Shown: positions 8,180 through 49,147 of the stretch, one piece after another
Numbering within the stretch: the stretch's first letter is position 1
Layout: each line of letters opens with the position of its first letter
DNA from: an uncultured Acholeplasmatales bacterium
GTDB taxonomy: Bacteria > Bacillota_I > Bacilli_A > Acholeplasmatales > Anaeroplasmataceae
Direction of reading: 5' to 3'
Length of the DNA stretch: 64,000 bases
Assembly (NCBI GenBank): GCA_944323055.1
Contig: CALUQZ010000006.1
Location: 1 to 64,000, forward strand
Translations under genes and position numbers: made by a program
Notes under the pieces: generated by a model
What the model saw: the letters and a program-made list of their open reading frames with translations, nothing else
Databases searched by the model: none
Told to the model about the DNA's origin: nothing

Positions 8180-8180
8180 T

Positions 8181-9523: not shown

Positions 9524-10123
9524 TTATCTATTATAGAACTCAACAATTAATTGTTCTTTAATTTCTGGTAAGAATTCATCACGTTCAGGAATTCTAACAA
9601 GAGTACCAACGTTCTTATCTGCATCAAATGCTAAATATTCAGCTCTTACAGTTTTAGCTTCTAAACTAGCTTTAACAACAGTTAGATTTTTAGAAGTTTC
9701 TTTTAAAGAAATTTGTTCACCAACAGAAACTGTGTAAGAAGGAATATCAACTTTTTTACCATTAACTAAGAAATGACCATGATTTACTAATTGTCTAGCT
9801 TGTGCTCTAGTAGCTGCAAAACCTAGGCGATAAACTAAATTGTCTAAACGCATTTCTAGTAATTGTAAGAAGTTAACACCAGTGTTACCTTTCATCTTAC
9901 TAGCTTTTGCAAAAACCTTTCTGAATTGTTTTTCTGATAATCCGTAAGTGAATTTAACTCTTTGTTTTTCTTGTAATTGAATACCATATTCACTTAACTT
10001 TACTCTTTTGTTACCATGTTGACCAGGTGCATATTTTCTTTTTGCGATTTCTTTACCTGTTTCACTAATTGAGTAACCTAAACGTCTACTTACTTTCCAA
10101 GTAGGACCAGTGTATCTTGACAT
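9524..10123 (-). CDS. rpsD: 30S ribosomal protein S4
   Basis: Primary 16S rRNA-binding protein that starts assembly of the small-subunit body. A 199-residue protein beginning [16 protein letters not shown], as in Firmicute S4 without the zinc motif. The S4 RNA-binding domain is at about residues 90-150 ([32 protein letters not shown]). It is monocistronic as in Bacillus. Ribosome site AAAGGAG ends six bases before the ATG. The upstream region contains a typical pseudoknot-forming S4 leader and a strong promoter, which implies repression of translation or transcription by free S4. Confidence 0.98.
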
Positions 10124-10289
10124 GTTTCTTTCTCCTTTTCTATATTTTTGGTAAAAGAGGATTTAGAATCATTTTGTTATGCTATTTATCTATCATTTAT
10201 ACTTTCACCATAAGCAGCTAAGATTACTAATATCCTCGCAAGGTTAAGATAAAATAGATAGCAAAAATGACAGCTGCTTTTACCCATGC
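10124..10289 (-). promoter_or_regulatory. S4 autoregulatory leader RNA
   Basis: On the minus strand AAGCAGCT (10279 to 10272) pairs with AGCTGCTT (10219 to 10212). A second helix, GCTAT (10262 to 10258) with ATAGC (10185 to 10181), crosses it, giving a pseudoknot. GGTAAAAG (10284 to 10277) can instead pair with CTTTTACC (10157 to 10150) close to the ribosome site, so two competing folds exist. This matches the known Firmicute and alpha-operon style of S4 control. The leader is about 165 bases. Confidence 0.75.
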
Positions 10290-10295
10290 TTAAGA

Positions 10296-10324
10296 ATGAT
10301 ATCACAAACTGTCTTTGATTGCAA
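10296..10324 (-). promoter_or_regulatory. rpsD promoter
   Basis: On the minus strand TTGCAA (10324-10319), a 17-base spacer and TATCAT (10301-10296) preceded by TGA, an extended -10. The start point would be near 10289. Confidence 0.65.
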
Positions 10325-10332
10325 GAAAAAAA

Positions 10333-10361
10333 TTTACTAATTAGTTAATTTATGCTACAAT
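10333..10361 (+). promoter_or_regulatory. thiI promoter
   Basis: TTTACT (10333-10338), a 17-base spacer and TACAAT (10356-10361) preceded by TGC. Divergent from the rpsD promoter. Confidence 0.65.
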
Positions 10362-10392
10362 ATGACGATTGATAAAGGAAAGGAATAGTAAT

Positions 10393-11634
10393 ATGTATGA
10401 TAGAATATTAGTTCGCTTTGGTGATTTAACATTGAAGGGTAAAAATCAAAGTGATTTCATTAGACAATTATATAAATTATTAGATGAAAAGTTAAGCGAT
10501 TTACCGGTTGAAATAGAAAAGAAACATGACCATGCGTATGTAATCCTAAATAATGTAAATTATGAAGATGTCATTGAAAGATTAAATTTAGTAGCTGGTA
10601 TATACTCTTATAGTTTAGTTAAAAAGATTGCTAGAGATTTAGAAACATTAAAAAGAGAAGCACTTAGTTATGTTAACGAATTAATTACTAAAACAACTAC
10701 TTTTAAAGTTGAAACTAAAAGAGCTGATAAAACATTTAACATGACAAGTATGGAAGTTTCTAAAGTAATATCGGCGTATTTATTAAAAAATAATTCTCAT
10801 CTAAAGGTTGATTTACATAATCCTGAATTTGAATTAAAAATTGAAATTAGAAGTGATGGTATCTACATATTTAATGGCCAAATTAGAGGTCTAGGAGGAT
10901 ACCCGACTGGTATTGCTGGCAAAGGTTTATTAATGTTAAGTGGTGGTATCGATTCGCCGGTTGCTGGTGTTTTAGCTATGAAACAAGGAATTAAAATTGA
11001 ATGTATTCACTTTGAATCAACACCATTAACTTCAATTGAATCTGCTCAAAAAGTTATAGATTTACTAAAAATTATGGCAAAATATGCACCAGGTAATAAA
11101 ATATTATTACATTTAGTACCATTTAAAGAACTACATATGGCTTTATTAGATAAAATCCCAGAGTCATATAATATAACAATAATGCGTAGAATGATGTATA
11201 GAATAGCTAGTAAGATTGCCCAAAAGCATGATGATTTAGTCTTAATAAATGGTGAATCAGTAGGTCAAGTAGCTAGTCAAACTTTACAAAGCATGGCTAC
11301 TATCAATGAAGTGACAAATATGCCAGTGATTAGACCTTTAGCAACCTACGATAAAGTTGATATTGTAGCTATGTCACGTAAAATTCAAACATTTGACATT
11401 TCAATTAGACCATTTGAAGATTGCTGTACTGTTTATGTCCCTAAGGCTCCCGCAACTGCTCCGAAAGCTTATAAAGCTAGAGCTTATGAAGAGGCTATCC
11501 CTTATCAAGAATTAGTAGATAAGGCAGTTTTAAACACTAAATCAGTATACATATCTAAAGATAGTGATTTAAATTTATCATTATACGGCCTAGAAGTTAG
11601 TGAGGCATTAGATGAATATAATAAAACTAAGTAA
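10393..11634 (+). CDS. thiI: tRNA 4-thiouridine synthase ThiI
   Basis: Adenylates U8 of tRNA and transfers sulfur from a cysteine desulfurase to form 4-thiouridine. It may also feed thiazole synthesis. At 413 residues it has an N-terminal ferredoxin-like region, THUMP domain (about 60-165), and PP-loop ATPase with SGGIDSP at 183-189. The length is that of forms without a C-terminal rhodanese domain. I chose ATG 10393, which gives the family start MYDRILVRFGDLTLKGKN and lies after AAAGGAAAGG; an upstream TTG adds nothing conserved. Its 3' end overlaps the methyltransferase gene by 23 bases. No partner desulfurase is adjacent. Confidence 0.95.
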   Translation: MYDRILVRFGDLTLKGKNQSDFIRQLYKLLDEKLSDLPVEIEKKHDHAYVILNNVNYEDVIERLNLVAGIYSYSLVKKIARDLETLKREALSYVNELITKTTTFKVETKRADKTFNMTSMEVSKVISAYLLKNNSHLKVDLHNPEFELKIEIRSDGIYIFNGQIRGLGGYPTGIAGKGLLMLSGGIDSPVAGVLAMKQGIKIECIHFESTPLTSIESAQKVIDLLKIMAKYAPGNKILLHLVPFKELHMALLDKIPESYNITIMRRMMYRIASKIAQKHDDLVLINGESVGQVASQTLQSMATINEVTNMPVIRPLATYDKVDIVAMSRKIQTFDISIRPFEDCCTVYVPKAPATAPKAYKARAYEEAIPYQELVDKAVLNTKSVYISKDSDLNLSLYGLEVSEALDEYNKTK

Positions 11635-14529: not shown

Positions 14530-16803
14530 ATGCGACTTATAATAACAACTAACTCTAATAAAATGAATATTTTAAAAAACACTAAAGTTTTAATTCCACG
14601 AAGATTTATGTCTTTAAATGAATTAAAAGATAAACTATTAGGTAAATTTGATTTTAAAAGTATTTATTATATTTATAAAAATTATCAATTCAATTTGCCT
14701 TTTATTTTTAATATAGTTAAATATTTACCATATATTGATTTAAAAAAAGAATATAAATCAAATAAATTAAATGAACTAAAATTATTAAAAAATGATTTAT
14801 TATTAAATAAATACTATAGCTATGATAAACTATTTTTAGCTTATCTTAAAGATTGTCAAATAGAATTTATTAATTTAGATGATACATTAGAAAATCAAAT
14901 TATTTTAAATATATTAAAAGAAAATGATATTAAATATAGTATAAAAAACAATCAATATTTAAATAAAAAATATGAACTTAAAATAGCTAAAACAGAAGAA
15001 GAAGAAATATATTATGTTTTTAGTGAAATTAATAAATTGTTAAAAAAAGGTGTATTACCAGAACATATTAATTTAGTAAATGTTGATAGTACGTATTATC
15101 CGTTATTAAAAAGAGTTAGTTATATATTTAAAGTTGATATAGCTTTAACTAAAGAAGCTAGTCTTATTGATAAAGAAGAATTAAATACTTTTTTAAATAA
15201 TATAAATAATTTATTAGAAGCTTTGCAAAATATTAAAGATGAGGTTTTATATAAAGCTTTAGTCGATATCATTAATAAATATGATTTGACTAAAATTAAT
15301 GATATTAATTTTTTAAAAGATATTATTATTTATAGTATTAGAAATGTGAAATATCCTAATGTGACTTATGAACATGCTATAAAAATAGCTAATTTAAGCG
15401 ATAATTTTACAAATGATGATTATGTGTTTATTCTTAATTTTAATCAAAATTTCCCACATCTATTAGAAAATGATTATTTGATTGATGATGAACTACAAGA
15501 ACTTAATTTAGATACAATTAAAAGTTTAAATAATCAAATTATTAAAAACCATATTAATGATTTACATAAAGTTAATAATCTAGTTTTATCTATGCCCACT
15601 CTTTTTAATAATGAAAATAATTTCTTATCTGTATTAGCTTTAGAATTAGATATAAAAGAAGAAAAAATCAATTTAGAACTAGGATTAAATAAAATGTTTG
15701 ATGATATTTTACTTACTAGTTATTTAGATGATTTAGTTAACTACAATGTTGATAATGAAAATTTAAATAAATATGATATTAGTCATTTAAATTATTTAGG
15801 TTATGATAATAAATTTAAGCCTTTTCCTTTAGTTATTGATGATGAGATTAAAGTGTCTTATTCTAGTATGAAAACATATTTTTTATGTTCGTTTTACTAT
15901 TACCTTGATAATATTTTAAAGCTTAAAGTTAGTGAAGATACACAAGCTTCTAAATTAGGAACTTATGTTCATCATTTATTAGAAAGTAGTTATAATCAAG
16001 ATTTTAATTTTGAATCAATTAGTAAAGAAGCTAAAAAAGACTTTAATAAAAAAGAACAATTTTATGCTAGTAGATTTGATGAAGTTGTTAAAAGGCTGAT
16101 TCAATTTAATAAAGAACATGAAAATGAGAGTGATTTAACAACTGTTGAACGAGAACGTAAATATGAAGTTAAAAATGATTTTTTATTAGTTAAAGGTTTT
16201 ATTGATAAGACTCTAAAACAAGAAGATAAAGATAAAATTACTTTAGCGATTATTGATTATAAAACGGGACAAGATAAAGCTAGTCTTGATAATATTAATT
16301 ATGGTTTTAATATGCAATTACCAATTTATCTATATTTATTGTATAACACATATAAAGACAAAGAGATTGAGATATGTGGTCTATATTTACAAAAAGTAAC
16401 TTTAGATACTTTATCTTTAACTGAAGATGTATTTAGCCCTTTTAAACTTAATGGATATACTAATTTATTATACGCTGATAAATTAGATAAAAGTTATATG
16501 AATACTTCTTATATAGCCAATTTAAAGTTTAAAAAAGATGGTAGTTTAAGCAAAACATCTAAAGTTTTAACTAATAAAGATATTTTAGAAATATTAGATA
16601 TTGTTAATTCTAAATTAAACGAGATTAAAGATGCTTATATAAATAGTGATTTTAAGATTAATCCAAAAGTAATATCTAATGATGTCAATGCCTGCAAGTA
16701 TTGTCCTTATTCAGATATTTGTTATCACCAATATAAAGATACAATTATATTAGAAAATAAACCGTTTAATAAGGGGGAAGAAACAGATGAAATGGACAGC
16801 TAA
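14530..16803 (+). CDS. addB: AddB subunit of the AddAB helicase-nuclease (short form)
   Basis: Partner of AddA in resecting DNA double-strand ends for RecA-dependent repair. At 757 residues it is much shorter than Bacillus AddB (about 1170). The N-terminal P-loop is missing: the protein begins directly in a helicase-like fold with no GxxGxGK motif. The C-terminal PD-(D/E)XK nuclease is intact, with LGTYVHHLLE and IIDYKTG (Asp576, Lys578). It is framed by four iron-sulfur cysteines in the AddB pattern (Cys453, Cys722, Cys725, Cys731). addA starts 17 bases before its stop. Promoter directly behind the khpA terminator. Confidence 0.88.
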   Translation: MRLIITTNSNKMNILKNTKVLIPRRFMSLNELKDKLLGKFDFKSIYYIYKNYQFNLPFIFNIVKYLPYIDLKKEYKSNKLNELKLLKNDLLLNKYYSYDKLFLAYLKDCQIEFINLDDTLENQIILNILKENDIKYSIKNNQYLNKKYELKIAKTEEEEIYYVFSEINKLLKKGVLPEHINLVNVDSTYYPLLKRVSYIFKVDIALTKEASLIDKEELNTFLNNINNLLEALQNIKDEVLYKALVDIINKYDLTKINDINFLKDIIIYSIRNVKYPNVTYEHAIKIANLSDNFTNDDYVFILNFNQNFPHLLENDYLIDDELQELNLDTIKSLNNQIIKNHINDLHKVNNLVLSMPTLFNNENNFLSVLALELDIKEEKINLELGLNKMFDDILLTSYLDDLVNYNVDNENLNKYDISHLNYLGYDNKFKPFPLVIDDEIKVSYSSMKTYFLCSFYYYLDNILKLKVSEDTQASKLGTYVHHLLESSYNQDFNFESISKEAKKDFNKKEQFYASRFDEVVKRLIQFNKEHENESDLTTVERERKYEVKNDFLLVKGFIDKTLKQEDKDKITLAIIDYKTGQDKASLDNINYGFNMQLPIYLYLLYNTYKDKEIEICGLYLQKVTLDTLSLTEDVFSPFKLNGYTNLLYADKLDKSYMNTSYIANLKFKKDGSLSKTSKVLTNKDILEILDIVNSKLNEIKDAYINSDFKINPKVISNDVNACKYCPYSDICYHQYKDTIILENKPFNKGEETDEMDS

Positions 16804-19800
16804 TCAACAAGAAGCTATTGAAAAAAGGAATAATAACATTTTAGTTTCAGCTGGAGCTGGTTCAGGTAAAACAGCTGTTCTTTCGGAAAGAGTTTTAGAG
16901 TTTGTTAAAGCTAATAATAGTATTAATGATTTATTGATTTTAACATTTACTAAAGCAGCAGCTTTAGAAATGAAACAACGAATTTATAAAAAATTAAAAA
17001 ATGAAGGTTTAGATGAAGAGGCTAAGTTAGCCTTAAATGCTAACATAACTACTTTTGATGCTTATTCTTTAGGCTTAGTTAAAAAATATTACTATTATTT
17101 AGGGATTGACAAAAATATCGGAATAGCTGATAGTAATATTATTACTGAAGAAAAGAAAAATATTATTGTAGATATCCTTAATGAATTATATGAAAAGGAA
17201 GATAAGATATTTTATAATTTTTTAATTAAGGAAAATATTAAGGATGATACTAGTATTATTGATGGTATATTAAAGCTTTCTAATAAATTAGATTTGTTAG
17301 TAGATCCGGTTAGTTATCTTAATAGTTATTTAGATAAATATTATGATAAAGATTTTTTAAATAAGATAGTTGATGATTATAATAAATTAGTTTTATCTTT
17401 TTTCTTAGAAAAAATTGATAAATTAGTTGATTTAAAAAATTTATTAGATGAAGATAATATAGCAGTTATAGAATATATTGATAGTTTTGTTTATGATGCT
17501 AATCATTTAAATGGTTATGATGAGTTATATGATTTAATATCAAATTTTAAGATGCCAAGATTAAAACCTAAATCTGATGACAGTGTTAAAGAGGCTAAGA
17601 CTTTAGTAACTGCAGAAATAAAGAAATTATATAATGATTTTTTAGTTTCTTATCCAACTAGAGATTCAATACTTGCAGATTTAGAAAAATCTTATGATGA
17701 TGCTAGTTTTATTTGTAGTGTATGTCTTAATCTAATTAAAAGAATTACTGATTTTAAAAATAAATATTCATATTATACATATAATGATATAGCTAAATTA
17801 GCTATAAAATTAGTTGATAGTAATCATAATGTGAGAGAAGAATTAACTAAACAATTTAAAGAAATATTAGTAGATGAATATCAGGATACTTCTGATCTAC
17901 AAGAAACTTTTTTAAGTTATATTACAAATAATAATCTATATATGGTAGGCGATATTAAACAATCTATATATCGGTTTAGAAATGCTAATCCTTATATATT
18001 TAAAAATAAATATAGTCGTTTTAAAAATAATAATGGTGGTATTAAAATTGATTTATTAGAAAACTTTCGTTCACGAAAAGAAGTATTAAATTCTATTAAT
18101 GAAATATTTACTAATTTAATGACTGATGATTTTGGTGACTCTTCATATGAAAAAGATGGTAAGATGCGTTATGGCCTTAAGAGTTATGATGATTTTAGTA
18201 AAGGTGATTATAGGACAGAAGCTTTAGTTTATGAATATGATAAAGAAAGTGAATATGCTAAGGATTTTAAGAAAGATGAGATAGAAGTCTTTATATGTGC
18301 TAAAAAAGTAAAAGAATTAGTTGATAATACTTATTCTTTAGTTGGAAACAATCTAGTTAAAACCAGTTATAGTGATATAGCTATTATTGTTGATAAAAGT
18401 ACTAATTTTGTCTTATTTAAAAAGGTTTTTGAATATTTTGGTATTCCTCTGGCGATAGAAAGAGATTTAGATGTTAAAGATATTAGCTTAACTAAGACTT
18501 TAATAGCTCTCTTAGATGTTATAGTGGGAATTAAAGAAAATAAGTATGATATTCCTTTTAAACATGCTTTAGTTAGTGTACTTAGAAGTTTTATTTTTAA
18601 TATGTCTGATAAAGAGATATATGATATTATTAAAAATGCTAATTTTGATATTGATTTAGTTAATATAATTAAGAGTATAGATTTAAATAATGATGCTTTT
18701 AGTATCTATTACGAGGCTTTAAGTAAAGTAGATATTTATAAAAAATTAAGTTTAATTGGTAATATTAATACATCTTTAACAATTATAGATTATATTGCTA
18801 AATTATTATTAGATTATAATAAATTAGGTTATGATTTAAAAAAGAGCATCGTGTTTTTAAGCGACATTTTAGATAGTGATTATAAAATGAACTTTAAATC
18901 AGCTACTAATAAGGCTTGTGAAGTTAAACTTATGACTATTCATCATTCTAAAGGTTTAGAATATTCTTATGTTATTTGTCCTTTTCTTAATTCTAAATTA
19001 AATGATGATGATTTTAAATTGCCGTTTAATTTCAATTTAGATTATGGTTTATATGCTAAAAAAAGTGATCAATCAGGAGATAAAAGTGTTAAAGCTATCA
19101 TGTATAAGGCTAGTGAAAGTAAAAAACTATTATCAGAAAGAGTTAGGTTGTTGTATGTAGCATTAACTAGAGCTAGGGAAAAACTTATTTTAGTTTTAGA
19201 AAAAGATAATAAAAAAATAAGTAAAACTCAAGTTGTTACTTTTAAAGATATGTTAAATTATTCTAATGCTTTAAAAAAGTATGAAAAGAAAGTAGATATT
19301 TTAGAATTAGGTTTAACAAAAGATTATAATTCTTTAAAGAATACAACTATTATAAAAACTGATACTAAGACAGTTGATTATGAAGATATAGATTATCGTA
19401 GTAATATTTTAGTTAAAGGTAAAATATCTAAAGAAAACTATCAAATAATTGATGATAAAACACGTTATATTTTAGAACTTGGTACTAATATTCATAATGC
19501 TTTAGCTAATTTAGATTTAAAAAATCCAGATTATTCTAAGATAGATGTTAAATATCAAGAACCTATAAAAAAGATGTTAAATTTAGCTATTTTTAAAGAT
19601 ATTAATAAAGCTAATATTTATCAAGAATATGAGTTTTATTTTAATGATAAGGAATCATATTATGGTATTATGGATTTATTATTAGAATATGATGATCATT
19701 TTGTAATAATTGATTATAAATTAGCTGATTTGAATAAAGAAGAATATTTAAGACAGTTAGGTGTTTACAAAAAATATTTAAAAACATTAACTGAGAAGAA

Positions 19801-19864
19801 AATATATGTTTATTTAGTTAGTATTATGCGTTTGGAGGTTAAAGATTTAACAAATGAAATATAA
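16787..19864 (+). CDS. addA: AddA helicase-nuclease subunit
   Basis: UvrD-type superfamily 1A helicase and nuclease that unwinds and cuts DNA ends together with AddB. A 1025-residue protein, somewhat shorter than Bacillus AddA (about 1230). Walker A GAGSGKT at 23-29, Walker B VDEYQDT near 361-367, then GDIKQSIYRFR, ENFRS, THHSKGLEY-like motif V (IHHSKGLEYSYVICP) and VRLLYVALTRAREKL motif VI. The C-terminal nuclease site is GIMDLLLEYDDHFVIIDYK. AAGGGGG precedes its start inside addB. rimM begins 11 bases before its stop, joining repair genes to the tRNA and ribosome maturation pair. Confidence 0.95.
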   Translation: MKWTANQQEAIEKRNNNILVSAGAGSGKTAVLSERVLEFVKANNSINDLLILTFTKAAALEMKQRIYKKLKNEGLDEEAKLALNANITTFDAYSLGLVKKYYYYLGIDKNIGIADSNIITEEKKNIIVDILNELYEKEDKIFYNFLIKENIKDDTSIIDGILKLSNKLDLLVDPVSYLNSYLDKYYDKDFLNKIVDDYNKLVLSFFLEKIDKLVDLKNLLDEDNIAVIEYIDSFVYDANHLNGYDELYDLISNFKMPRLKPKSDDSVKEAKTLVTAEIKKLYNDFLVSYPTRDSILADLEKSYDDASFICSVCLNLIKRITDFKNKYSYYTYNDIAKLAIKLVDSNHNVREELTKQFKEILVDEYQDTSDLQETFLSYITNNNLYMVGDIKQSIYRFRNANPYIFKNKYSRFKNNNGGIKIDLLENFRSRKEVLNSINEIFTNLMTDDFGDSSYEKDGKMRYGLKSYDDFSKGDYRTEALVYEYDKESEYAKDFKKDEIEVFICAKKVKELVDNTYSLVGNNLVKTSYSDIAIIVDKSTNFVLFKKVFEYFGIPLAIERDLDVKDISLTKTLIALLDVIVGIKENKYDIPFKHALVSVLRSFIFNMSDKEIYDIIKNANFDIDLVNIIKSIDLNNDAFSIYYEALSKVDIYKKLSLIGNINTSLTIIDYIAKLLLDYNKLGYDLKKSIVFLSDILDSDYKMNFKSATNKACEVKLMTIHHSKGLEYSYVICPFLNSKLNDDDFKLPFNFNLDYGLYAKKSDQSGDKSVKAIMYKASESKKLLSERVRLLYVALTRAREKLILVLEKDNKKISKTQVVTFKDMLNYSNALKKYEKKVDILELGLTKDYNSLKNTTIIKTDTKTVDYEDIDYRSNILVKGKISKENYQIIDDKTRYILELGTNIHNALANLDLKNPDYSKIDVKYQEPIKKMLNLAIFKDINKANIYQEYEFYFNDKESYYGIMDLLLEYDDHFVIIDYKLADLNKEEYLRQLGVYKKYLKTLTEKKIYVYLVSIMRLEVKDLTNEI

Positions 19865-37946: not shown

Positions 37947-38022
37947 GGGCCCTTAGCTCAGTTGGTAGAGCAACTGACTCTTAATCAGTGGGTCAAGAGT
38001 TCGAGTCTCTTAGGGCCCACCA
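37947..38022 (+). tRNA. tRNA-Lys, anticodon CTT
   Basis: A 76-base gene with encoded CCA. Acceptor stem GGGCCCT / AGGGCCC, D-arm with GGTAGAGC, anticodon stem ACTGA / TCAGT enclosing loop CTCTTAA (anticodon CTT at 37980-37982), and T-arm with GTTCGAGTC. It reads AAG. Its 3' end marks the boundary between core genes and the accessory region. Confidence 0.97.
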
Positions 38023-39287: not shown

Positions 39288-39328
39288 AAAATAGTCTACA
39301 AAATAGCTTTAATTGTAGGCTATTTTTT
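39288..39328 (+). terminator. Terminator directly upstream of the helicase operon
   Basis: AAAATAG-T-CTACAA / TTGTAG-G-CTATTTT with an eleven-base loop and six Ts. It insulates the operon from upstream transcription. Confidence 0.8.
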
Positions 39329-39336
39329 GTTATAAT
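39328..39336 (+). promoter_or_regulatory. Extended -10 promoter of the four-gene helicase operon
   Basis: TGT-TATAAT beginning in the last T of the terminator. A start point near 39343 leaves about 58 bases before ATG 39401. Confidence 0.55.
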
Positions 39337-39400: not shown

Positions 39401-40864
39401 ATGAATAAGGCGTTTGATACTTTAAAAAATAAAATAGTTTCTTCAACCGAAACTGAAATTAAATACACAGTCAGAGCTAATGATAAACGCTTTATTTGTC
39501 CTTGTTGCGGAGAATATGTCACCTTAACTAAAGTTGGTCATAATATTCAGCACTTTAAACATAAAAAGAAAGATGATACTGAGTGTGACTATCGATTAGA
39601 AAATACTAATTATCAAATATTGCGTTATTATGACGCAAAAACGCTATTTGCTTTACCTATATATTTAGTTAAAAGCAGAATATGGTCATTAAATTTAGGC
39701 ATCCTTATGACTAAATCAGCTAATTGTAAAGTAAAGTATAGTGATGATTCCACTAAGTATGATTTAGTTGATATTGATATTACCAAAACTAAAAGATTTT
39801 ATTATTTTCACTTATTTCATTTTTCTAGTACATATTACGTCTCATTTTCTAATGATAAGATTGCCTATGGTGAAGGTATTAAAGATTTAAATATGTTCTA
39901 TGTTAAAACTGGAAGACTCATAAGAGAAGAAGAAAAGATATATAGCAATGAAAGCTATTATTTTACAATAAACACGGAGTATAAACATTGTTCACTTATT
40001 TCTAATGTGTTAGAAGATAAATATAAGGCACTTTCAATTGGTAATCTTGAAGCTGATAATGGCACTTTAAAAATTTTTTACGTTGAAGCAAAAGCTAAAG
40101 AACTTAAAGTATATATAGCTAAATTAATGAATAAAACATTAAGTGTAAGGAAAGCTCAAATAACTTTTTATTGGCCGCTACATTATAGAGAACAAGATAA
40201 AGTCTTTTTCTTTTATGATAATGAAATATTATTTAATATAGATAACACAAAAACATTAAATAATTTAGATGGTGAAATTATTTCGAATGTTACACATTAT
40301 ATCCCTAAAAATCATGATGCCATTATAGGGAGTAGTGATGAAGATGGTTTTGTTGCTAATACAATTTTGAGTAACCAAATTTCTTATAGTAATAAATTTT
40401 CACCATCTATTAAGTTGACTGATATAAATAGTGCTAATATTATGGATGAAGAAGCACTAATTTTAAAAGACTTTAGAGTTGTATCTAATATAAAATGTAA
40501 AGTTGTTTTATTTGGTAAAGAAGTAAAAGTTTTAAAGCCTACGTATTCAAAAGGTGGTTTTTTTGAATATCAAGTAAACATAGTTGATGATGATTATTTT
40601 ATTTCAATAGTTTATCAAAATAGAGTTTATAAGCGACTATTTGTTAAGAAAAAAGATAACAAAGTTATAACTAAGTTATCCTTAAATAAGATTTTATTAT
40701 TAGCTAGAAATTGTGATTTAGTTCCAGTAAATAAGGAAAAGTTGTTTTATATATTTAACAAAATAAATAATTTATATATTAAAAGAGTAATTTATAAATA
40801 TATCAAAAAAGGCTTTATTTCAAGAAAATTACAAAATTATATTATAGAAAGTGGAGTGTTATAG
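39401..40864 (+). CDS. CoiA-like zinc-finger protein, first gene of the helicase system
   Basis: A 487-residue protein. Residues 30-64 form a zinc-finger-like module as in the N-terminus of CoiA-type proteins: Cys33 and Cys36 (FICPCCG), HFKH (His51, His54) and Cys62. The remaining 420 residues are rich in beta strands (several YYVSFSND, YFTINTEY, KLFYVEAKA type strands) and basic near the end. I see no nuclease or ATPase motif. In CoiA proteins the finger sits before a nuclease domain; here that part is not recognisable. GGGAGG lies seven bases before ATG 39401. The next gene starts three bases after its stop. It probably binds DNA and recognises the target for the helicase; this is inference. 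Confidence 0.6.
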   Translation: MNKAFDTLKNKIVSSTETEIKYTVRANDKRFICPCCGEYVTLTKVGHNIQHFKHKKKDDTECDYRLENTNYQILRYYDAKTLFALPIYLVKSRIWSLNLGILMTKSANCKVKYSDDSTKYDLVDIDITKTKRFYYFHLFHFSSTYYVSFSNDKIAYGEGIKDLNMFYVKTGRLIREEEKIYSNESYYFTINTEYKHCSLISNVLEDKYKALSIGNLEADNGTLKIFYVEAKAKELKVYIAKLMNKTLSVRKAQITFYWPLHYREQDKVFFFYDNEILFNIDNTKTLNNLDGEIISNVTHYIPKNHDAIIGSSDEDGFVANTILSNQISYSNKFSPSIKLTDINSANIMDEEALILKDFRVVSNIKCKVVLFGKEVKVLKPTYSKGGFFEYQVNIVDDDYFISIVYQNRVYKRLFVKKKDNKVITKLSLNKILLLARNCDLVPVNKEKLFYIFNKINNLYIKRVIYKYIKKGFISRKLQNYIIESGVL

Positions 40865-40867
40865 TAT

Positions 40868-42892
40868 ATGAAATCAATTGCCATTACGGTTATTAATAAT
40901 GTAACTAATTCGCGTAATATAAGAAGAATGTTTGATATTGAAAAAGATAAATTAGTTTCTAATTTTACGTATTACAAAGAAGTTATAAACTTTATGATAC
41001 CTACACAATATTATCAAAATGCAACCGATGGTGATATGTTTGTTATTGACTGGGAATGTATTTCATCCGAAGATTTTGATACTAGAACAGTGGTAAACTC
41101 AGTAACTGATGCTAATTCAGTATTGTGTGAAATACTAGATATTGAATGTAAATTAACTCCTGATATTTTGCTAACTGGTATCGAAATGGATTGGCGACCG
41201 ACTAATAGGTTTTTTGTTTTAACTGGCATGTCTTCTAGCAATGACTATGAAGCAGTTAAGTGTAATATGAATTATTTTTTGAGAACAAGCGAGTCTATTA
41301 AATTAAAAGATAAAATAAACAATAAGTATTTAGTTAGATTAGAAAAGTGCTATATTCCGAAAACAGATTTAAAGTCTAGTACATTGTGCCCAGGCAGAAA
41401 ATTCTATTCATCTGTTGATGTGACTTTGCTAAAGGATGCGAGTTCATCTTTTTTAATTAATGATGGTTCTGTTATATTAACTGAATATTACAAAAGAGTA
41501 TTAGAAAATCGTAAAAAAGAATTAGGTATAACTCATAGAGAAATTAGTGATTTTACAAATAAATTATTAGCAGCTATGAATGAAGGTAAAAATAGCACTG
41601 ATTATTTAGTTTCCTATGGCTATACTGAAAAAGAAGCTGAAGAACTAGTAAAAAAAGAAAGTGATAAAGTTATAAGTTTGTTATTGCTTCAAGATGATAA
41701 CCTTGATGCTATACAAAACATAATTTTAAATTCTTCTAAGGTTCGTATGAAATACCTTGATATTGTAAATGATATATATGTTAAAAAAAATCACGAAAGA
41801 TTAGATAAGATAGAACAAGAATTTAAAGAAAAAGAAGAAATTTTAAATAGATTAAATGCAAATATTGACGCTAAAAAAGTACAGTATGATAGTTTCAGTA
41901 AGGATTTAGATGATAAAAAGGCCAAGCTAGATGAAGAAAAAAATCTCATTTTATCTTATCTTGAGAACTTGCCAGCGAAGGTTAGTGATTATGTTATTAA
42001 TAGTGAATTATTAAAAAAATTTAAAACTAACATTAATGTTGAGCCAATAGTAGGTAATTGTAACACAAACCCTAATGTTGTAATTTATGGCGACAACGTA
42101 GATAGAAAAGACATTGATAAAGAATATCTTCTTGAAATTCTTAGTACAGAATCTAAAACGCTTGGAATTATACCTAAATATCAAAAAGATATTGTTGATT
42201 GTGTTTTAGATGTCATAAAACTAAAAATGAACTTTATTGTTGAGTCATCATGCGCTTTAAAATTTGCTAAATTTTTAAACACCTTTTGTTACAACAAAAA
42301 ATTGAATATTTTATATGTAGATACTTCAACAACTGTAACAGATTTAGCAAATTTGAATTTATTAAATAATGAATTATACCTTGTTTATGGAGTTTTTGAA
42401 AAGCTAGATATTCATCTAAATCAAACAATATCTAGTTTATATCCAACAAGTACATTTGTATTTGCTATAGATGATGCAAAGTTATTAAAACTATTCCCTA
42501 CAACTTTATGGTCAAATAATTTTTATTTTTCATATTCATTTTTCGCTACGTATAATGGCTATATTGTGCCAACAGAAGATAATCAAAATTATTATAAATT
42601 TAATATTAATCAGACTACAAATAGCTTCAATTCAGACTTGTTTATGGATTATTTTTCAATTGATATTGCTGATAAATCAGTACTAAAAGATAACTATTAC
42701 TTTGTATCTAATCTGATAAAAAAATTCAATATAGTATCTAGCAAAACTGGGAATCTTAATGAATTTTATGTTATGCAAATTATGTTAATTTTAAATTCTT
42801 TAGGCCTAACTTTAGAAAATGATGTAAATTTTAATGGCATAAATGACAGCTTAAGTTCATATGTGGAGAAATTTTTAGCACATGACAACTAG
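40868..42892 (+). CDS. Coiled-coil protein with a possible inactive ATPase domain, second gene of the helicase system
   Basis: A 674-residue protein of no recognised family. Residues 1-225 are mixed alpha/beta. About 300-362 is a charged coiled coil (HERLDKIEQEFKEKEEILNRL, KAKLDEEKNLI). The C-terminal third resembles an AAA-type core: a strand MNFIVESS near 455 where a P-loop would stand but with no GxGK, LNILYVDTST, and a Walker-B-like FVFAIDDAK (Asp535, Asp536). If this reading is right the ATPase has lost nucleotide binding and acts as a scaffold. It starts three bases after the CoiA-like gene, and the 320-residue gene begins 11 bases before its stop. Confidence 0.5.
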   Translation: MKSIAITVINNVTNSRNIRRMFDIEKDKLVSNFTYYKEVINFMIPTQYYQNATDGDMFVIDWECISSEDFDTRTVVNSVTDANSVLCEILDIECKLTPDILLTGIEMDWRPTNRFFVLTGMSSSNDYEAVKCNMNYFLRTSESIKLKDKINNKYLVRLEKCYIPKTDLKSSTLCPGRKFYSSVDVTLLKDASSSFLINDGSVILTEYYKRVLENRKKELGITHREISDFTNKLLAAMNEGKNSTDYLVSYGYTEKEAEELVKKESDKVISLLLLQDDNLDAIQNIILNSSKVRMKYLDIVNDIYVKKNHERLDKIEQEFKEKEEILNRLNANIDAKKVQYDSFSKDLDDKKAKLDEEKNLILSYLENLPAKVSDYVINSELLKKFKTNINVEPIVGNCNTNPNVVIYGDNVDRKDIDKEYLLEILSTESKTLGIIPKYQKDIVDCVLDVIKLKMNFIVESSCALKFAKFLNTFCYNKKLNILYVDTSTTVTDLANLNLLNNELYLVYGVFEKLDIHLNQTISSLYPTSTFVFAIDDAKLLKLFPTTLWSNNFYFSYSFFATYNGYIVPTEDNQNYYKFNINQTTNSFNSDLFMDYFSIDIADKSVLKDNYYFVSNLIKKFNIVSSKTGNLNEFYVMQIMLILNSLGLTLENDVNFNGINDSLSSYVEKFLAHDN

Positions 42893-43844
42893 AGAATTAA
42901 TAATAGTTAAAATGAAACAACAATTCACATTTCCTGATGTTGAAAGTGTTGATGATTTAATTATTAACACTTACTTATCATTATTGTTAATGATGTATTG
43001 TGTTGAAATTAATGATTATACTGAAAATACATCTAAAATAAGTGACTTAAGAAAGATTGCTAATGAGATTATTTATGCTGATAGAGGATTAGTAAATGAC
43101 AAAAATGTAGATAATGTGAAAAACATCTTGGCAAAATTAGTTGATTTTGGCCATATATTTCACATTATGGATGATAAATTGTATAAAACAAAATATATTA
43201 CAGCTAATCAAACTTATCATTATAAAGATTTATATTTTCAAATGGGTTTACCTAAAAACTTAAAAGACACAATTTTGTCAGGTAATACATTTATAGTTAA
43301 CGAAATAAACCCTTTTGCTGAATATGATTTAAATCCAGGTATAGATTTAAAATTGCTAGAAGCATATTATAGGGAGCAATTTGTTAATTTGGATACCTAT
43401 AAAACTGAATGTTTTAACATAAATTTAAAATCTAGCTATTCATCTAACAAATGGATTTCTATTATAGATTCTTCTGATTTTGATTTAAACATAGCAAGAA
43501 GAGAAGAAAGTAACCACTATATATATTATTTATGTCAAAAGAAGAGTGATGTTTTAAAAGGTAAAAATATTGACGAAAATTTTTCAATTAAGGAATTGGA
43601 ACAATTTCGGTGGATATTTTATATAATGTACCAGAATAACAATGTTTTAACTGCGACTATTGTTAATATAGATAATTATTTTGTTAAAATAAATTTACCA
43701 TATAGACTACCACTATTCGAAAAAAATGTTCTAGCAAATATTGGTTTTGAAATATCTAATATTTGCTACATAGTTAGAAAAGAATTTTTGACTTTAGTCA
43801 AAAATTTATTAAAAAATTGTTATTTAAACATAAACTTGAGGTGA
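42882..43844 (+). CDS. Unrecognised protein, third gene of the helicase system
   Basis: A 320-residue soluble protein. The first third is helical and contains a possible winged-helix segment (about 85-118, NVKNILAKLVDFGHIFHIMDDKLYKTKYI). The rest is mixed, with many aromatic residues. No metal-binding or catalytic motif is apparent. It overlaps the 674-residue gene by 11 bases and ends four bases before the helicase gene (TGA, then ATG), so all are made together. Possible adaptor between the DNA-binding and helicase subunits; not supported by motifs. Confidence 0.5.
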   Translation: MTTRELIIVKMKQQFTFPDVESVDDLIINTYLSLLLMMYCVEINDYTENTSKISDLRKIANEIIYADRGLVNDKNVDNVKNILAKLVDFGHIFHIMDDKLYKTKYITANQTYHYKDLYFQMGLPKNLKDTILSGNTFIVNEINPFAEYDLNPGIDLKLLEAYYREQFVNLDTYKTECFNINLKSSYSSNKWISIIDSSDFDLNIARREESNHYIYYLCQKKSDVLKGKNIDENFSIKELEQFRWIFYIMYQNNNVLTATIVNIDNYFVKINLPYRLPLFEKNVLANIGFEISNICYIVRKEFLTLVKNLLKNCYLNINLR

Positions 43845-43848
43845 TTAG

Positions 43849-46800
43849 ATGAACGATAATTTAGGGATTGAAGAAATACATCAAGCTCTTTTAAATAAAT
43901 TATTAAATTATATTAAAGCTGAATATTTAGGCAAGAACATAAATTTACTAGAAGCTTGTGAAAAGAAGCTGACTAAAAAAGGTGTTCTTTACCAAGACTT
44001 TATGGTTGAAGCAAATCGTGGCTATGAACAAGCTAAAGATGCAATTTATGATATCTTTAATGATAAAAAATTAAAACATATTCTAGAAAGTTTAGTTGAT
44101 GCTAATATTGGTTTTTTTAAGTATCCATATTTACATCAAATAGAATCATTAAAGGCCTATTTTGCGGGTAAAGATTTACTAATCTCAACTGGTACTGGTT
44201 CAGGTAAAACTGAATGTTTTTTGTGGCCTATTGTACTAAAGATGATTTTAGAAGCGATAAATAATAGCAAGTCTTGGAATACTAGAGGTACAAGAGTAGT
44301 TATACTTTATCCAATGAACGCCTTAGTCTCTGATCAAGAAGCAAGATTAAGGAAAATGATAGGTTGTGAAGAATTTAAAAATGTTTTTAGTGATTTAACA
44401 GACTCTAGTCGAAGACCACAATTTGGTATGTACACTGGTCGCACTAAATATTCTGGCAGTCACACAAAGGACAAAGATAAAAAATTAGCCAATATTTTAG
44501 AAAGTGCTTATATTAATACAAATGGCTCATCTAAGAAAGAAGTAATAATTAATGAATTAAAGGAACGGGGGAAATATCCAGCTAAAAAATCTTTAAGCAA
44601 TTTTATCGAAAATCTAAGGAATGGTAATCATTATACAGATCCTGATGATGCTGAACAAATTACAAGATTTGAGATGAAACAAGTATGTCCTGACATTCTA
44701 ATTACAAACTATTCAATGCTCGATTATATGCTTATTAGAAATGAAGAACAATCTATATGGGATAGTACAAAAAAATGGCTTAATTGTGACAAAAATAATA
44801 AATTATTGTTTGTTATTGATGAAGCACATATGTATAAAGGCTCAGCAGGGGCTGAGGTGGCTTTATTAATTAAAAGATTTATTTCATTTTTAGGTATTTC
44901 TAGAGATAGAGTTCAGTTTATTTTAACTAGTGCATCATTCCCACAAAATTCTGAAAGTGATGTGCAAAAATTTTCTAATGACTTAAGCGGTGGCAATACT
45001 CAATTTGTTATTATTAATGGTAAACATAAAGAATTTCATAATCAAATTGAATACAAAATAAATATTCCTAATAATTTTGATTATGACATTAAAGAATTAT
45101 ATAAGGATAAAATCAATGTTATAAATAGTAAGTTTGCAGAATTAGGAATAAATTTAAAGCCTAATGATAAATTGACTTCAGTAGCAACTTTGGGTGATGA
45201 GCTTTATAATTTATTGCCTAAAATAAAAGAAGTTAGAGATATTATTTCTTTAACTAAAAATAACGCCATTTCAGTAGAAAAAATTAGTAAAAGTGTATTT
45301 AATAATAATTCGTTAGTTTCTAAACATATAATTGAATTTTTGTTAGTTTTATTACCATTTGCTAAAAACAAATTAGGCCAGGCACTATTCCCAACAAGAA
45401 TTCATATGATGTTTAAAGGGATTGATGGCATTTATGCTTGCTCTAATCCAAATTGTAGCGCTAAAGAACACAATTTGCCATTCGGAGAAATCTTTATTAA
45501 TAGGAAACTAGATAGATGCCCAGTTTGTCACAGTAAGGTTTATGAACTAACTAATGATAGAAGATGTGGAGCTCTTTATTTTAAAGGCTATCTTCAAGAT
45601 AATGATAATTTTTTCTGGAATAGTCAGGTCTATACCAATGGTTTAAAAGAAATTAGTGCTTATATTGTATCAGGTAATGAAATGGGTGAAGATTCGACCT
45701 CAAAAAAGAAAATTAAAGACAAAGTTTATTATTTAGATTGTCAAACCGGAAAGCTTTTAAATAAACAAAACAGTAATACTTTATCCGTAATTATAGGTGA
45801 TAATCTAGATAATATTAAATGCCCTAAATGTCATAGCGATAATATAACTGTTACTGATTTTATTACTAAAGGGAATGAACCTTTCTACAACTTAATTTCT
45901 GCTCAATTTGACTTAGAACAAGTTGAAACACCAACTGATAAAAAGTTGCTTTTATTCTCTGATAGTAGAAATAAGGCTGCTAAACTAGCGCTTGATTTAA
46001 CAATGGCAGCCGATAGAAATGCTAGTCGAACAATTATAGTTCTAGCAGCTAAAAGGTTGTTAGAATCAGCAACTAAATTTAATTATCAAGCGCAAATGCG
46101 TTATCTATACATGGCATTTTTAGATGTTGCCTGTGATAAAAAAATAAATTTTTATTATGGTGATGAATATAATAAATTTGATGAAGAAAAGGAAAAATTT
46201 CTTACAAACAAGTCTGATTATTTACAGGGCTCAAATGATATATTAAATTATCAAGAATTTTATAATGATTATTCTCAAGATGAAACATCTTTTTTTCAGG
46301 AAGAATTATTATATCATTTATGTGACAAGTACAAATCTTTAACTGGTTTAAAATTGGCTTATATTAAACCTGTAAACTCTATAATTAATAAGTTTAAAAA
46401 AACGGGAATGTATTTAAATCATAAATTGTCAGAAGTTGAATTTGTAAGTATTTATAGCGCCTATATGCGTTATCTTTTAATTAGATACATTGGTTATAAT
46501 AAAGATATTTCTGAAAAAATAAGGGATAATGTTTCCACTTACACTAAACAACAAATGACATCATCATTTAGCAAAGATTTTGTGAACTTACTTAAGAATC
46601 GACTAAGCGATTCTGAAATTAATGATTTATTTTTAATTGTAAAATTAGGGTTACAAGATTCTAATGGACTTTATGTTGATCCTAGTAAAAATATATTAGT
46701 CATTGATGATAGTATGGATTGGTATATTTGTCCTAATTGCGGTGGTGTTTTTAAATTCACATTTGATAATAAATGTTTGGTTTGTCAGTCTTCAGAGCCA

Positions 46801-48942
46801 AGGAAAATAGAAGCTAGGGATTTAAAAAAATTTGATTTCTATACAAAAGAAGTAATAAACAATTTAAATTACACTAATGCTTCAGTAACAACTATTAATA
46901 CAGTCGAACATACAGCTCAGTTAAGTGCAACTGAAGAAACAGACGATGAAATGTGGACTCAAACAGAAAAATATGAAATGAAGTTTCAAAATTTATCATT
47001 AGATGATGACAATGCATCTATTGATATACTAAGTTGTACAACAACAATGGAAGTAGGTATTGATATTGGCTCTCTAACTGCTATAGGTTTAAGAAATGTG
47101 CCACCAAGAGTAGAAAATTACCAACAACGAGTTGGTCGTGCTGGTAGACGTGGTTCATCAATATCAACTATAACAACATTTATTGAACATGGCCCGCATG
47201 ATAATTATTATTTCAAAAATCCTGAAGAAATAATCACAGGTCCAATGAGTCGACCATGGATTGATGTCAATAATATTAAATTAATTGGAAGGCATTTATC
47301 ATTATATTTATTTAATATATTTTTCTTACGTAGTAAAAAAAGTATATATGATACTAAAATTGATGATTTCTTTGCTCATTATTTAAGTAAAATTATCGAT
47401 TTTGTAAAGGAATCATTAGATGATACTAAGCTTTATAATGCTTTAGTTCCTTTTAATTCAACATTCAATAAAAAAAAATACTTTGAAGAATTAGTTAAAA
47501 AGCTAAATGATATTAAAGTTAAATTCAATAATATTCAATCATTATTTAAAGATGATAATAATGAATTCATTTCAGTATTAAACACATTCACTACTGAAGG
47601 TGTTTTCCCAACTTATTCATTTCCTAAAAATGTTGTTAGTTTCTATATTCCAAACACGAAAAATCCAAGCAAAATTGAACATGCTCCGTCACGTTCTATT
47701 GATGTTGCATTAAGTGAATATGCTCCGGGTAAGGTTATTGTTGTAGATAGGAAAACTTATAAGTCAGCTGGGCTTTATACTAAAAGGCAAAATGAAATTT
47801 TAATTAACAAATTTTTAAGTGCAAATGAATATAATAAAGAAGTATTTGTTTGTGATAACGAAAAATGTAACTGGTTAGACAAAGAAGAGCCAGCTAAAGA
47901 GTCATGTCCGTTTTGTGGTAGTTCAATAAGCAAAAGAAATTTAGTAAAACCATGGGGCTTTGGACCGGAGAAGGGGCGTTATTCAAAAGATAGTGCTAAT
48001 GTGGATGTTTATACAAATTCTACTGAGCCAATATATGCAATTGTTTCTAATGATGATAATATGATAAATGTTACATCATACCAAAACGTAAAAGTTGAAA
48101 ATAAATTTAATGAATTTATTTCTATAGTAAACACTGGTAAAGATAATAGTGGCTTTGATCTTTGTAAAAAATGTGGTGGTATGACTGTAGCAGTTGGTGA
48201 TGCTAAAATTACTGCACCAAGTATTGAAAATTGTCCACATAGGAAAACCACTAATGTATTTTTGGGGACAGCTGATATTATTACTGATATGGCTTTATTC
48301 CAAATTAAATTAGATACTAAGGAAATAAATTGTGATTTAAGCTATTATTGGTTAAAATTGGCTGCTACAACTATGGTTCAAGCAATAATCTTGTCAACTT
48401 CTAGACTACTTGATATTGATTTTAAAGAATTAAATGGTGGTTATAGAGTTCGAAATGACTCTGATACAAAAATTTTGGAAATATATATTCTTGATAGCTT
48501 AACTAGTGGTGCTGGGTATAGTTCTCTTGTTGCTAAAAGAGCTAAAGAAATATTGGATGGTGTAAGAAAGTTATTAAGCGATTGTAACTGCGATTCATCA
48601 TGTCATAATTGTTTAGAAAACTTCAGTAATCAATATATTGCTAAATATTTAGATAGATTTAGAGCTTTAGAATTACTTGACTATATGCAAACAAAATCAT
48701 TACCAAAATCTTTATCAAAATTAGAAAAAGTAGGACTTGCTAAACATATCAATGATTTATTTTCTAACAATAATCAATATATTGATGAAAATTTAGATTT
48801 CCACAATGGTAATAATGTTAGGAAGGTTAATATTTATCCAGGTATGCTAGCTAAAGAAAGCCAACCATCAAACACCATCAATATACCAGATTATTATATT
48901 GAACATGCTGAATCACTGGTTTATAAAGAATTATTAAAATAA
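43849..48942 (+). CDS. Giant DEAH helicase with DUF1998-type C-terminus (DruE/DrmA/MrfA-like)
   Basis: A 1697-residue superfamily 2 helicase. Q-like LHQIES near 95, Walker A GTGSGKTE (115-122), motif Ia LYPMNALVSDQ, PDILITNYSMLDYMLIR (281-297), DEAH box at 324-327, motif III TSAS (360-363), LLFSDSRNKAAKLAL, and motif VI QQRVGRAGRRG (1092-1102). Zinc modules: Cys531/536/557/560; a ribbon Cys961/964/976/979; Cys1335/1340/1353/1356; and Cys1439/1442. The C-terminus has EIYILDSLTSGAGYSS and the four-cysteine cluster Cys1579-x-Cys1581-x3-Cys1585-x2-Cys1588, as in DUF1998/MrfA helicases. Size, layout and last place in the operon match DruE of Druantia, but the partners differ. GAGGTGATTAG precedes the ATG. 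Probable DNA translocase of an anti-phage system. Confidence 0.88.
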   Translation: MNDNLGIEEIHQALLNKLLNYIKAEYLGKNINLLEACEKKLTKKGVLYQDFMVEANRGYEQAKDAIYDIFNDKKLKHILESLVDANIGFFKYPYLHQIESLKAYFAGKDLLISTGTGSGKTECFLWPIVLKMILEAINNSKSWNTRGTRVVILYPMNALVSDQEARLRKMIGCEEFKNVFSDLTDSSRRPQFGMYTGRTKYSGSHTKDKDKKLANILESAYINTNGSSKKEVIINELKERGKYPAKKSLSNFIENLRNGNHYTDPDDAEQITRFEMKQVCPDILITNYSMLDYMLIRNEEQSIWDSTKKWLNCDKNNKLLFVIDEAHMYKGSAGAEVALLIKRFISFLGISRDRVQFILTSASFPQNSESDVQKFSNDLSGGNTQFVIINGKHKEFHNQIEYKINIPNNFDYDIKELYKDKINVINSKFAELGINLKPNDKLTSVATLGDELYNLLPKIKEVRDIISLTKNNAISVEKISKSVFNNNSLVSKHIIEFLLVLLPFAKNKLGQALFPTRIHMMFKGIDGIYACSNPNCSAKEHNLPFGEIFINRKLDRCPVCHSKVYELTNDRRCGALYFKGYLQDNDNFFWNSQVYTNGLKEISAYIVSGNEMGEDSTSKKKIKDKVYYLDCQTGKLLNKQNSNTLSVIIGDNLDNIKCPKCHSDNITVTDFITKGNEPFYNLISAQFDLEQVETPTDKKLLLFSDSRNKAAKLALDLTMAADRNASRTIIVLAAKRLLESATKFNYQAQMRYLYMAFLDVACDKKINFYYGDEYNKFDEEKEKFLTNKSDYLQGSNDILNYQEFYNDYSQDETSFFQEELLYHLCDKYKSLTGLKLAYIKPVNSIINKFKKTGMYLNHKLSEVEFVSIYSAYMRYLLIRYIGYNKDISEKIRDNVSTYTKQQMTSSFSKDFVNLLKNRLSDSEINDLFLIVKLGLQDSNGLYVDPSKNILVIDDSMDWYICPNCGGVFKFTFDNKCLVCQSSEPRKIEARDLKKFDFYTKEVINNLNYTNASVTTINTVEHTAQLSATEETDDEMWTQTEKYEMKFQNLSLDDDNASIDILSCTTTMEVGIDIGSLTAIGLRNVPPRVENYQQRVGRAGRRGSSISTITTFIEHGPHDNYYFKNPEEIITGPMSRPWIDVNNIKLIGRHLSLYLFNIFFLRSKKSIYDTKIDDFFAHYLSKIIDFVKESLDDTKLYNALVPFNSTFNKKKYFEELVKKLNDIKVKFNNIQSLFKDDNNEFISVLNTFTTEGVFPTYSFPKNVVSFYIPNTKNPSKIEHAPSRSIDVALSEYAPGKVIVVDRKTYKSAGLYTKRQNEILINKFLSANEYNKEVFVCDNEKCNWLDKEEPAKESCPFCGSSISKRNLVKPWGFGPEKGRYSKDSANVDVYTNSTEPIYAIVSNDDNMINVTSYQNVKVENKFNEFISIVNTGKDNSGFDLCKKCGGMTVAVGDAKITAPSIENCPHRKTTNVFLGTADIITDMALFQIKLDTKEINCDLSYYWLKLAATTMVQAIILSTSRLLDIDFKELNGGYRVRNDSDTKILEIYILDSLTSGAGYSSLVAKRAKEILDGVRKLLSDCNCDSSCHNCLENFSNQYIAKYLDRFRALELLDYMQTKSLPKSLSKLEKVGLAKHINDLFSNNNQYIDENLDFHNGNNVRKVNIYPGMLAKESQPSNTINIPDYYIEHAESLVYKELLK

Positions 48943-49147
48943 TTGGAATGATAAGTCGTAGAAATACGGCATATCTTTACCGCTTACATTTTTTGTTGAA
49001 TATAACTATATATAATAAAAAAAGAATTATACTAGCGTAGAGCGCCACTATCACGATTTAGGATATACCCGCATCGGCGTATTATTTATGCTTCGTAGTA
49101 TAATTCTTTTTTTATAGAAACAGCTAATAAAGTTTATGAGTTATTAA
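48943..49147. ncRNA. Structured non-coding stretch ending the helicase operon
   Basis: About 205 bases without a gene. GTCGTA-GAAA-TACGGC (48955-48970) is a hairpin with a GNRA tetraloop. A perfect 18-base inverted repeat, AAAAAAAGAATTATACTA (49017-49034) and TAGTATAATTCTTTTTTT (49096-49113), encloses 61 bases that are visibly more GC-rich than the surroundings and contain further short arms (CGCC / GGCG). It can terminate both converging genes. The large, distinct loop suggests a small RNA, a palindromic repeat element or a MITE. Confidence 0.45.

What the first reader, a model, noticed from the sequence alone, without database searches (positions are those of the whole stretch)
39401..48942. 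Four-gene operon with a giant DUF1998-type helicase: candidate new Druantia/DISARM-like defence system
Seen: four genes with 3-4 base gaps or an 11-base overlap, flanked by terminators and lying after a tRNA with gene remnants. The last gene encodes a 1697-residue DEAH helicase with zinc modules and a C-terminal MrfA-type Cys cluster. Known: DruE of Druantia is a giant DUF1998 helicase that ends its operon, and DISARM uses DrmA/DrmB. Here DruA (DUF4338), DruH, methyltransferases and phospholipase D genes are absent. Instead there are a CoiA-like zinc-finger protein, a coiled-coil possible pseudo-ATPase and an orphan. Inference: a new subtype or a separate system against incoming DNA.
Basis: partly seen in the sequence, partly recalled or inferred. 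Interest (0 to 1): 0.88.

Follow-up and report, generated by a model that had tools for sequence, protein, structure and literature searches.

The report
Druantia defence operon lacking DruA
This is a four-gene anti-phage defence operon, a DruA-less form of the known Druantia type I system found mainly in gut Bacillota, and it suggests that the protein usually listed first in that system is not part of its core machinery.

Summary
In detail: four intact, tightly packed + strand genes (39401-48942) lie in an 11-kb insertion between tRNA-Lys and an acyltransferase gene. The last gene is a full-length DruE1 (1575 bits, 1697 aa). The three "orphans" are very divergent DruB, DruC and DruD in canonical order. 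PADLOC models barely see them, but profiles of 55-62 relatives that exclude the window find them (E 2e-30, 1e-26, 4e-19), and clade-only profiles also find E. coli DruB/C/D. The missing fifth gene, DruA (DUF4338), is a real absence: it is nowhere in this genome. In a survey of 80 relatives, BCDE cassettes without DruA form one DruE clade (UFBoot 95), mostly gut Bacillota. Whole-genome PF14236 searches found DruA in 0 of 35 such genomes and in 6 of 6 positive controls. A 10-member subclade carries a D12 adenine methyltransferase right after DruE. Best reading: a DruA-less lineage of Druantia type I, a helicase-centred block on phage DNA replication in which DruB-C-D-E is the core and DruA an accessory. 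Defence itself is inferred, not shown. New variant of a known kind; interest about 0.5.

The parts
39401..40864 (+). DruB homologue (487 aa): CoiA_N-type zinc domain (family-invariant C33, C36, H54, C62) followed by a strand-rich region; AF2 pLDDT 79
   Evidence: CoiA_N 1.6e-6; window-free DruB-family profile E=2e-30 over residues 1-482; the clade profile also finds E. coli DruB at 2.9e-11; invariant residues; model
40868..42892 (+). DruC homologue (674 aa): N-terminal beta-rich part, long coiled coil (about 290-376), C-terminal alpha/beta domain with a degenerate P-loop (pseudo-ATPase-like)
   Evidence: window-free DruC-family profile E=1.2e-26 over residues 14-646; clade profile finds E. coli DruC at 1.2e-9; model pLDDT 69; weak AAA+-like fold hits, none significant; Walker A in 1 of 57 family members
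42882..43844 (+). DruD homologue (320 aa), no known domain
   Evidence: PADLOC DruD1 5.6e-4; window-free DruD-family profile E=3.8e-19 over residues 71-315; clade profile finds E. coli DruD at 7.9e-13; no Pfam family
43849..48942 (+). DruE1 (1697 aa), YprA/MrfA-type SF2 helicase with Walker A, DEAH, motif VI and MZB/DUF1998 four-Cys cluster intact
   Evidence: PADLOC DruE1 1574.9 bits over 2-1688, versus DruE2 563, DruE3 517, DruE4 511, DrmA 50; Pfam; motifs
37947..38022 (+). tRNA-Lys(CTT), left border of the variable site
   Evidence: the same tRNA lies 70 bp from the acyltransferase gene in a congeneric genome without the operon
39288..39330 (+). stem-loop plus T-run upstream of the operon, likely terminator of older DNA
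   Evidence: fold -13.5 kcal/mol
49015..49115 (.). 20-bp perfect inverted repeat (61-nt spacer) between druE and the convergent acyltransferase gene; possible bidirectional terminator or small repeat element

Best explanation
The operon is a DruA-less Druantia type I-related anti-phage system (druB-druC-druD-druE) belonging to a monophyletic branch of DruE1 systems found mostly in gut Bacillota. Shown by computation: identity and order of the four genes, absence of DruA from the genome, the clade, and insertion at a variable tRNA-Lys site. Inferred: DruE is an ATP-driven DNA helicase that acts on phage DNA and is held or targeted by a DruB-C-D complex. In that complex DruB would be a zinc-finger adaptor, DruC a coiled-coil scaffold with a dead ATPase fold, and DruD a further subunit. 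No intact nuclease domain was found in any of the four proteins by family search. The block is therefore more likely remodelling or stalling of phage replication intermediates, possibly with host nucleases such as AddAB, than direct restriction. DruA would then be an accessory or regulatory factor of the canonical branch, not part of the core.
For: DruE1 is full length at 1575 bits, nearly three times any other DruE model. DruB/C/D are identified by profiles that exclude the window and reach E. coli DruB/C/D. The B-C-D-E order recurs in about 50 loci, with no DruA beside any of them except the canonical Pseudomonas reference. DruA is absent from the whole genomes G000, G007 and G049 and from 35 of 35 survey genomes with a DruA-less cassette, while 6 of 6 DruA-locus genomes score. 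The clade is monophyletic: 54 tips with SH 0.94 and no DruA inside, UFBoot 95. In 392 sampled genomes of the window's phylum, 5 carry DruE1 and none has DruA over the cut-off. Defence-type context: directly after hsdMSR (L013), next to hsdM/S (L014), beside Eco47II-type R-M in L021, L022 and L055. Accessory in the genus: 2 of 8 genomes carry DruE; the site is empty in one congener. Mechanistic precedents: Druantia III DruE engages ssDNA-containing replication intermediates with RecBCD involvement (PMC13192584); DruH-DruE blocks phage DNA circularisation and replication (PMC13316683); type I DruE has only an inactivated Vsr domain (PMC12458937).
Against: No phage data were found for any member of this clade. 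The window copy sits on a long branch (1.2 substitutions/site) with 9-20% identity to relatives in B, C and D, so it could have changed function. The DruC and DruB structure models are of moderate quality and have no convincing fold match. DruA elsewhere in incomplete MAGs cannot be wholly excluded, although several of the 35 genomes are isolates and the control recovered all DruA loci.
Confidence: 0.78

Rival explanations
1. A degenerate or decaying Druantia type I locus that simply lost druA and no longer works.
For: Low similarity and long branch; druD is frameshifted in the congener G007; remnants lie upstream.
Against: All four window genes are intact, with catalytic motifs kept. The DruA-less state is shared by a whole clade with conserved gene order in at least 35 genomes and by no DruA-bearing tip. 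Decay would not preserve 1700-aa helicases clade-wide.
Confidence: 0.08
2. A truly separate defence system that shares only the helicase with Druantia.
For: Single-protein scans with PADLOC, Pfam and NCBIfam find little in genes 1-3; DruA is absent.
Against: Genes 1-3 are DruB, DruC and DruD homologues by window-free profiles, in canonical order.
Confidence: 0.05
3. A DNA-repair or competence-related operon (MrfA-type helicase plus CoiA-like protein) rather than defence.
For: MZB/MrfA domain and CoiA_N domain.
Against: Patchy: 2 of 8 genomes in the genus; inserted at a variable tRNA site; neighbours are R-M systems in relatives. The DruE1 model beats all other helicase models by more than tenfold. 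No CoiA nuclease domain.
Confidence: 0.07

Closest known systems
Druantia type I (DruABCDE; E. coli locus L106, Pseudomonas putida plasmid pKF715A locus L018)
   Same: DruB, DruC, DruD and DruE homologues in the same order; DruE1 model matched end to end; helicase motifs and MZB cluster kept
   Different: no DruA (DUF4338) in the operon or genome; B, C and D so divergent that PADLOC models barely or do not score; separate DruE clade, mainly Bacillota
Druantia type III (DruH-DruE)
   Same: YprA-family DruE helicase as the last gene
   Different: no DruH; DruE3 scores three times lower; type III DruE carries a predicted active PLD nuclease (PMC12458937), none found here
Druantia types II and IV (DruMFGE; DruE-DruF-DruL)
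   Same: DruE-type helicase
   Different: no DruM, DruF, DruG or DruL match; DruE2 and DruE4 scores about a third of DruE1
DISARM (DrmA/DrmB) and ARMADA (YprA helicase + BrxHII + PglX)
   Same: helicase of the same YprA family
   Different: DrmA about 50 bits only; no BrxHII-like helicase gene and no methyltransferase in the operon
MrfA/MrfB repair helicase-nuclease
   Same: SF2 core and MZB/DUF1998 zinc module; YprA/MrfA (PDB 6znp) matched at 3.7e-16
   Different: 1697 versus about 750 aa; no MrfB; four-gene island

Membership tests
Druantia type I | DruE of subtype 1 (giant YprA-family helicase with MZB/DUF1998) | tested here: met
   1574.9 bits over 1687 residues, next best DruE2 562.6; motifs
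Druantia type I | DruB | tested here: met
   window-free profile 2e-30; clade profile hits E. coli DruB 2.9e-11; no PADLOC DruB1 hit on its own
Druantia type I | DruC | tested here: met
   1.2e-26; E. coli DruC 1.2e-9. Coiled coil could inflate scores, but the window match spans residues 14-646
Druantia type I | DruD | tested here: met
   3.8e-19; E. coli DruD 7.9e-13; PADLOC DruD1 5.6e-4
Druantia type I | DruA (DUF4338, PF14236) | tested here: not met
   0 matches in G000 even at E<=1; 0 of 35 genomes with DruA-less cassettes, 6 of 6 positive controls. Hence filed as a DruA-less variant, not type I in the strict sense
Druantia type I | operon order A-B-C-D-E | tested here: inconclusive
   B-C-D-E order met; A missing; compare L106 and L018
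Druantia type I | protection against phages | not testable with these tools
   needs a plating assay
Druantia type III | DruH next to DruE3 | tested here: not met
   no DruH model hit in the four proteins; DruE3 516.7 versus DruE1 1574.9 bits
Druantia type II/IV | DruF (with DruM/DruG or DruL) | tested here: not met
   no such PADLOC hits
DISARM | DrmA plus DrmB | tested here: not met
   DrmA 49.8 bits at best, no DrmB among the hits shown; DISARM DrmA NCBIfam 10.8 bits against cut-off 950
[quoted passage not shown]
   operon has only B, C, D, E; definition from PMC12458937

The most novel reading that the evidence does not exclude
DruB-C-D-E is the complete interference core of Druantia I, and DruA is a replaceable targeting or self-recognition add-on. 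In the DruA-less branch other modules, such as the D12 adenine methyltransferase fixed in one 10-member subclade or neighbouring R-M systems, would supply self/non-self discrimination, making this a distinct functional subtype.
Probability: 0.3. Interest if true: 0.68.

Novelty: new variant of a known kind. Interest (0 to 1): 0.52.

Why it matters
The functions of DruA to DruD are unknown, and type I is defined in the papers found here as DruA to DruE. A large natural clade that keeps B, C, D and E and never has A is a ready-made experiment: it predicts that DruA is dispensable for the core mechanism and narrows where the attack on phage DNA must come from. It also shows that model-based annotation can miss these systems, because the window's B, C and D fall at or below detection. 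The methyltransferase-bearing subclade offers a test of self-recognition.

Tried and rejected
Looking for DruB/C/D by single-protein scans (PADLOC, Pfam, NCBIfam) gave only weak hints, and direct BLASTP to a relative in the same order failed; only family profiles resolved it. A genome-contig scan with DruD alone found nothing. A phylum sample with DruD alone found only the window. Searched for a gene that replaces DruA next to druB throughout the clade: none is universal; HTH_26 genes or R-M genes occur in some. Looked for an att-like duplication of the tRNA-Lys 3' end: none, so no simple tRNA-integrase origin. Structure search of the DruB model gave only unspecific beta-sandwich hits with TM-scores near 0.15, so I draw no function from it. 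The DruC model gave AAA+-like hits, none below E 0.001, used only as weak support. Solved-structure search with the DruD family: nothing. Rfam: only the tRNA. Literature search for DruA-less type I systems found none, but the library lacks most subscription journals, including the original Druantia paper.
Full report
OBSERVATION. The four genes are real and exactly placed: 39401-40864, 40868-42892, 42882-43844 and 43849-48942, all +, with gaps of 3 and 4 bases and an 11-base overlap. They lie downstream of tRNA-Lys(CTT) 37947-38022 and upstream of a convergent acyltransferase gene. In a congeneric genome (L123) the acyltransferase and the tRNA are 70 bp apart, and another (L122) has 1.8 kb with a different gene and short ORFs there. 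The operon is therefore an insertion of about 11 kb at a variable site. The tRNA 3' end is not duplicated. Full-length DruE is present in 2 of 8 genomes of the genus, so it is not a fixed core locus.

GENE 4. The 1697-aa protein matches PADLOC DruE1 over 2-1688 at 1574.9 bits. DruE2, DruE3 and DruE4 reach 511-563 and DISARM DrmA 50. Pfam finds DEAD, Helicase_C and MZB. Walker A, DEAH, motif VI and the four-Cys cluster are intact.

GENES 1-3. Single-model scans give only hints (DruC1 0.0046, DruD1 0.00056, CoiA_N 1.6e-6). Two relatives in the same order and genus (G049 locus L013, G007 locus L014) have four genes in the same order, and the L013 gene 3 is a clear DruD1 (6e-23). I fetched 80 further DruE relatives from species-representative genomes and built iterated profiles of each upstream gene. 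With the window left out, the profiles find window gene 1 at 2e-30 (residues 1-482), gene 2 at 1.2e-26 (14-646) and gene 3 at 3.8e-19 (71-315). Profiles made only from the DruA-less clade also find E. coli DruB 2.9e-11, DruC 1.2e-9 and DruD 7.9e-13, taken from the annotated druABCDE locus L106. So the window operon is druB-druC-druD-druE.

DruA IS ABSENT. PF14236 gives no match in G000, G007 or G049 at E<=1. In the survey, B-C-D-E stands in order in about 50 loci; apart from the canonical Pseudomonas reference L018 none has DruA beside it, and the other DruA loci lie outside this branch. Whole-genome searches of 41 survey genomes found DruA in the 6 with a DruA locus and in 0 of 35 others.

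TREE. The DruA-less cassettes form one clade of 54 DruE tips with SH-like support 0.94, no DruA-bearing tip inside and the window on a long branch. IQ-TREE with 43 tips gives the clade UFBoot 95. There the DruA-bearing haloarchaeal DruE (L019) is its sister (100) and DruA-bearing lineages look paraphyletic (nodes 61 and 53), which would mean one loss of DruA; FastTree instead groups them (0.96), so direction is unresolved. A subclade of 10 (support 1.0) has a D12 N6-adenine methyltransferase directly after druE in all 10.

MECHANISM. DruB keeps an invariant zinc-binding set (C33, C36, H54, C62) and is otherwise strand-rich in the model. DruC has a long coiled coil and a C-terminal alpha/beta domain whose P-loop is degenerate: one of 57 members, and not E. 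coli DruC, matches Walker A. DruD is unassigned. No nuclease domain is found in B, C or D by Pfam; published work holds that the C-terminal Vsr domain of type I DruE is inactivated (PMC12458937). In type III, DruE acts on ssDNA-containing replication intermediates and depends on RecBCD functions (PMC13192584), and DruH-DruE blocks phage DNA circularisation and replication (PMC13316683). I therefore favour a helicase-centred attack on phage replication intermediates, perhaps finished by host AddAB (an AddB/AddA-like pair is at 14530-19864). The DruE chemistry follows from its family; complex formation, phage targeting and host-nuclease help are inference. DUF4338 has been described as GNAT-like in another context (PMC10853773), which would fit DruA as a modifying accessory; this is a guess.

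CLASSIFICATION. By published definition type I has DruA to DruE (PMC13316683, PMC7251935). DruA fails, so this is not type I in the strict sense but its DruA-less sister or derived lineage. That Doron et al. used DUF4338 as an anchor, which would hide such loci, is from memory. No paper found describes a DruA-less type I, within the limits of the library. The survey took the 80 best DruE relatives of a Bacillota query, so it says nothing about the overall frequency of the two branches.

Noticed in passing
L036, L037, L045, L047, L053, L054, L056, L067, L069, L075: first gene downstream of druE (e.g. L054:9738-10640): A D12-class N6-adenine methyltransferase (PF02086; PADLOC PD-Lambda-5_B 380 bits) follows druE in all 10 members of one DruE subclade.
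   Followed up: partly
L021:2586-4635, L022:3490-5417, L055:3624-5532: An m5C methyltransferase (HTH_26-fused in L021) plus Eco47II-type restriction enzyme pair sits directly upstream of druB.
   Followed up: partly
L026, L036, L047, L056, L058, L077, just upstream of druB: A small Cro/C1-type HTH_26 gene, likely a regulator, precedes druB; the window has none.
   Followed up: partly
L057, L062, L066, L074, L084, L089, L091, L092 downstream of druE: Related PD-(D/E)XK (PDDEXK_1, tested in L091) nuclease genes follow druE in eight loci of the DruA-bearing branch.
   Followed up: no
druE C-termini of L013, L014, L043, L046, L064: The DUF1998 four-Cys zinc cluster is lost in a Bacilli subclade of DruE, although it otherwise marks the family.
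   Followed up: partly
L014:7473-8526 (-): druD of the congeneric G007 is split by a frameshift after an A-run; could be decay, programmed frameshift or assembly error.
   Followed up: no
L020 (MT836687.1) 2862-10849: A contig deposited as 'Bacteriophage sp.' carries druB, druC and part of a DruE-type gene without DruA; mobile element or mislabelled host DNA.
   Followed up: no
window 49015-49115: A 20-bp perfect inverted repeat with a 61-nt GC-richer centre between druE and the acyltransferase gene.
   Followed up: partly
window 14530-19864: AddB/AddA-like pair (PDDEXK_1 protein and UvrD-type helicase).
   Followed up: no
L057, L060, L062, L089: In these loci on the DruA side of the tree a druD homologue lies about 2.5 kb upstream of druE, a gene order unlike canonical type I.
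   Followed up: no
L019:3364-14418: In a Haloplanus plasmid DruA is divergently transcribed from druB, and a single 611-aa gene stands where druC and druD would be.
   Followed up: no
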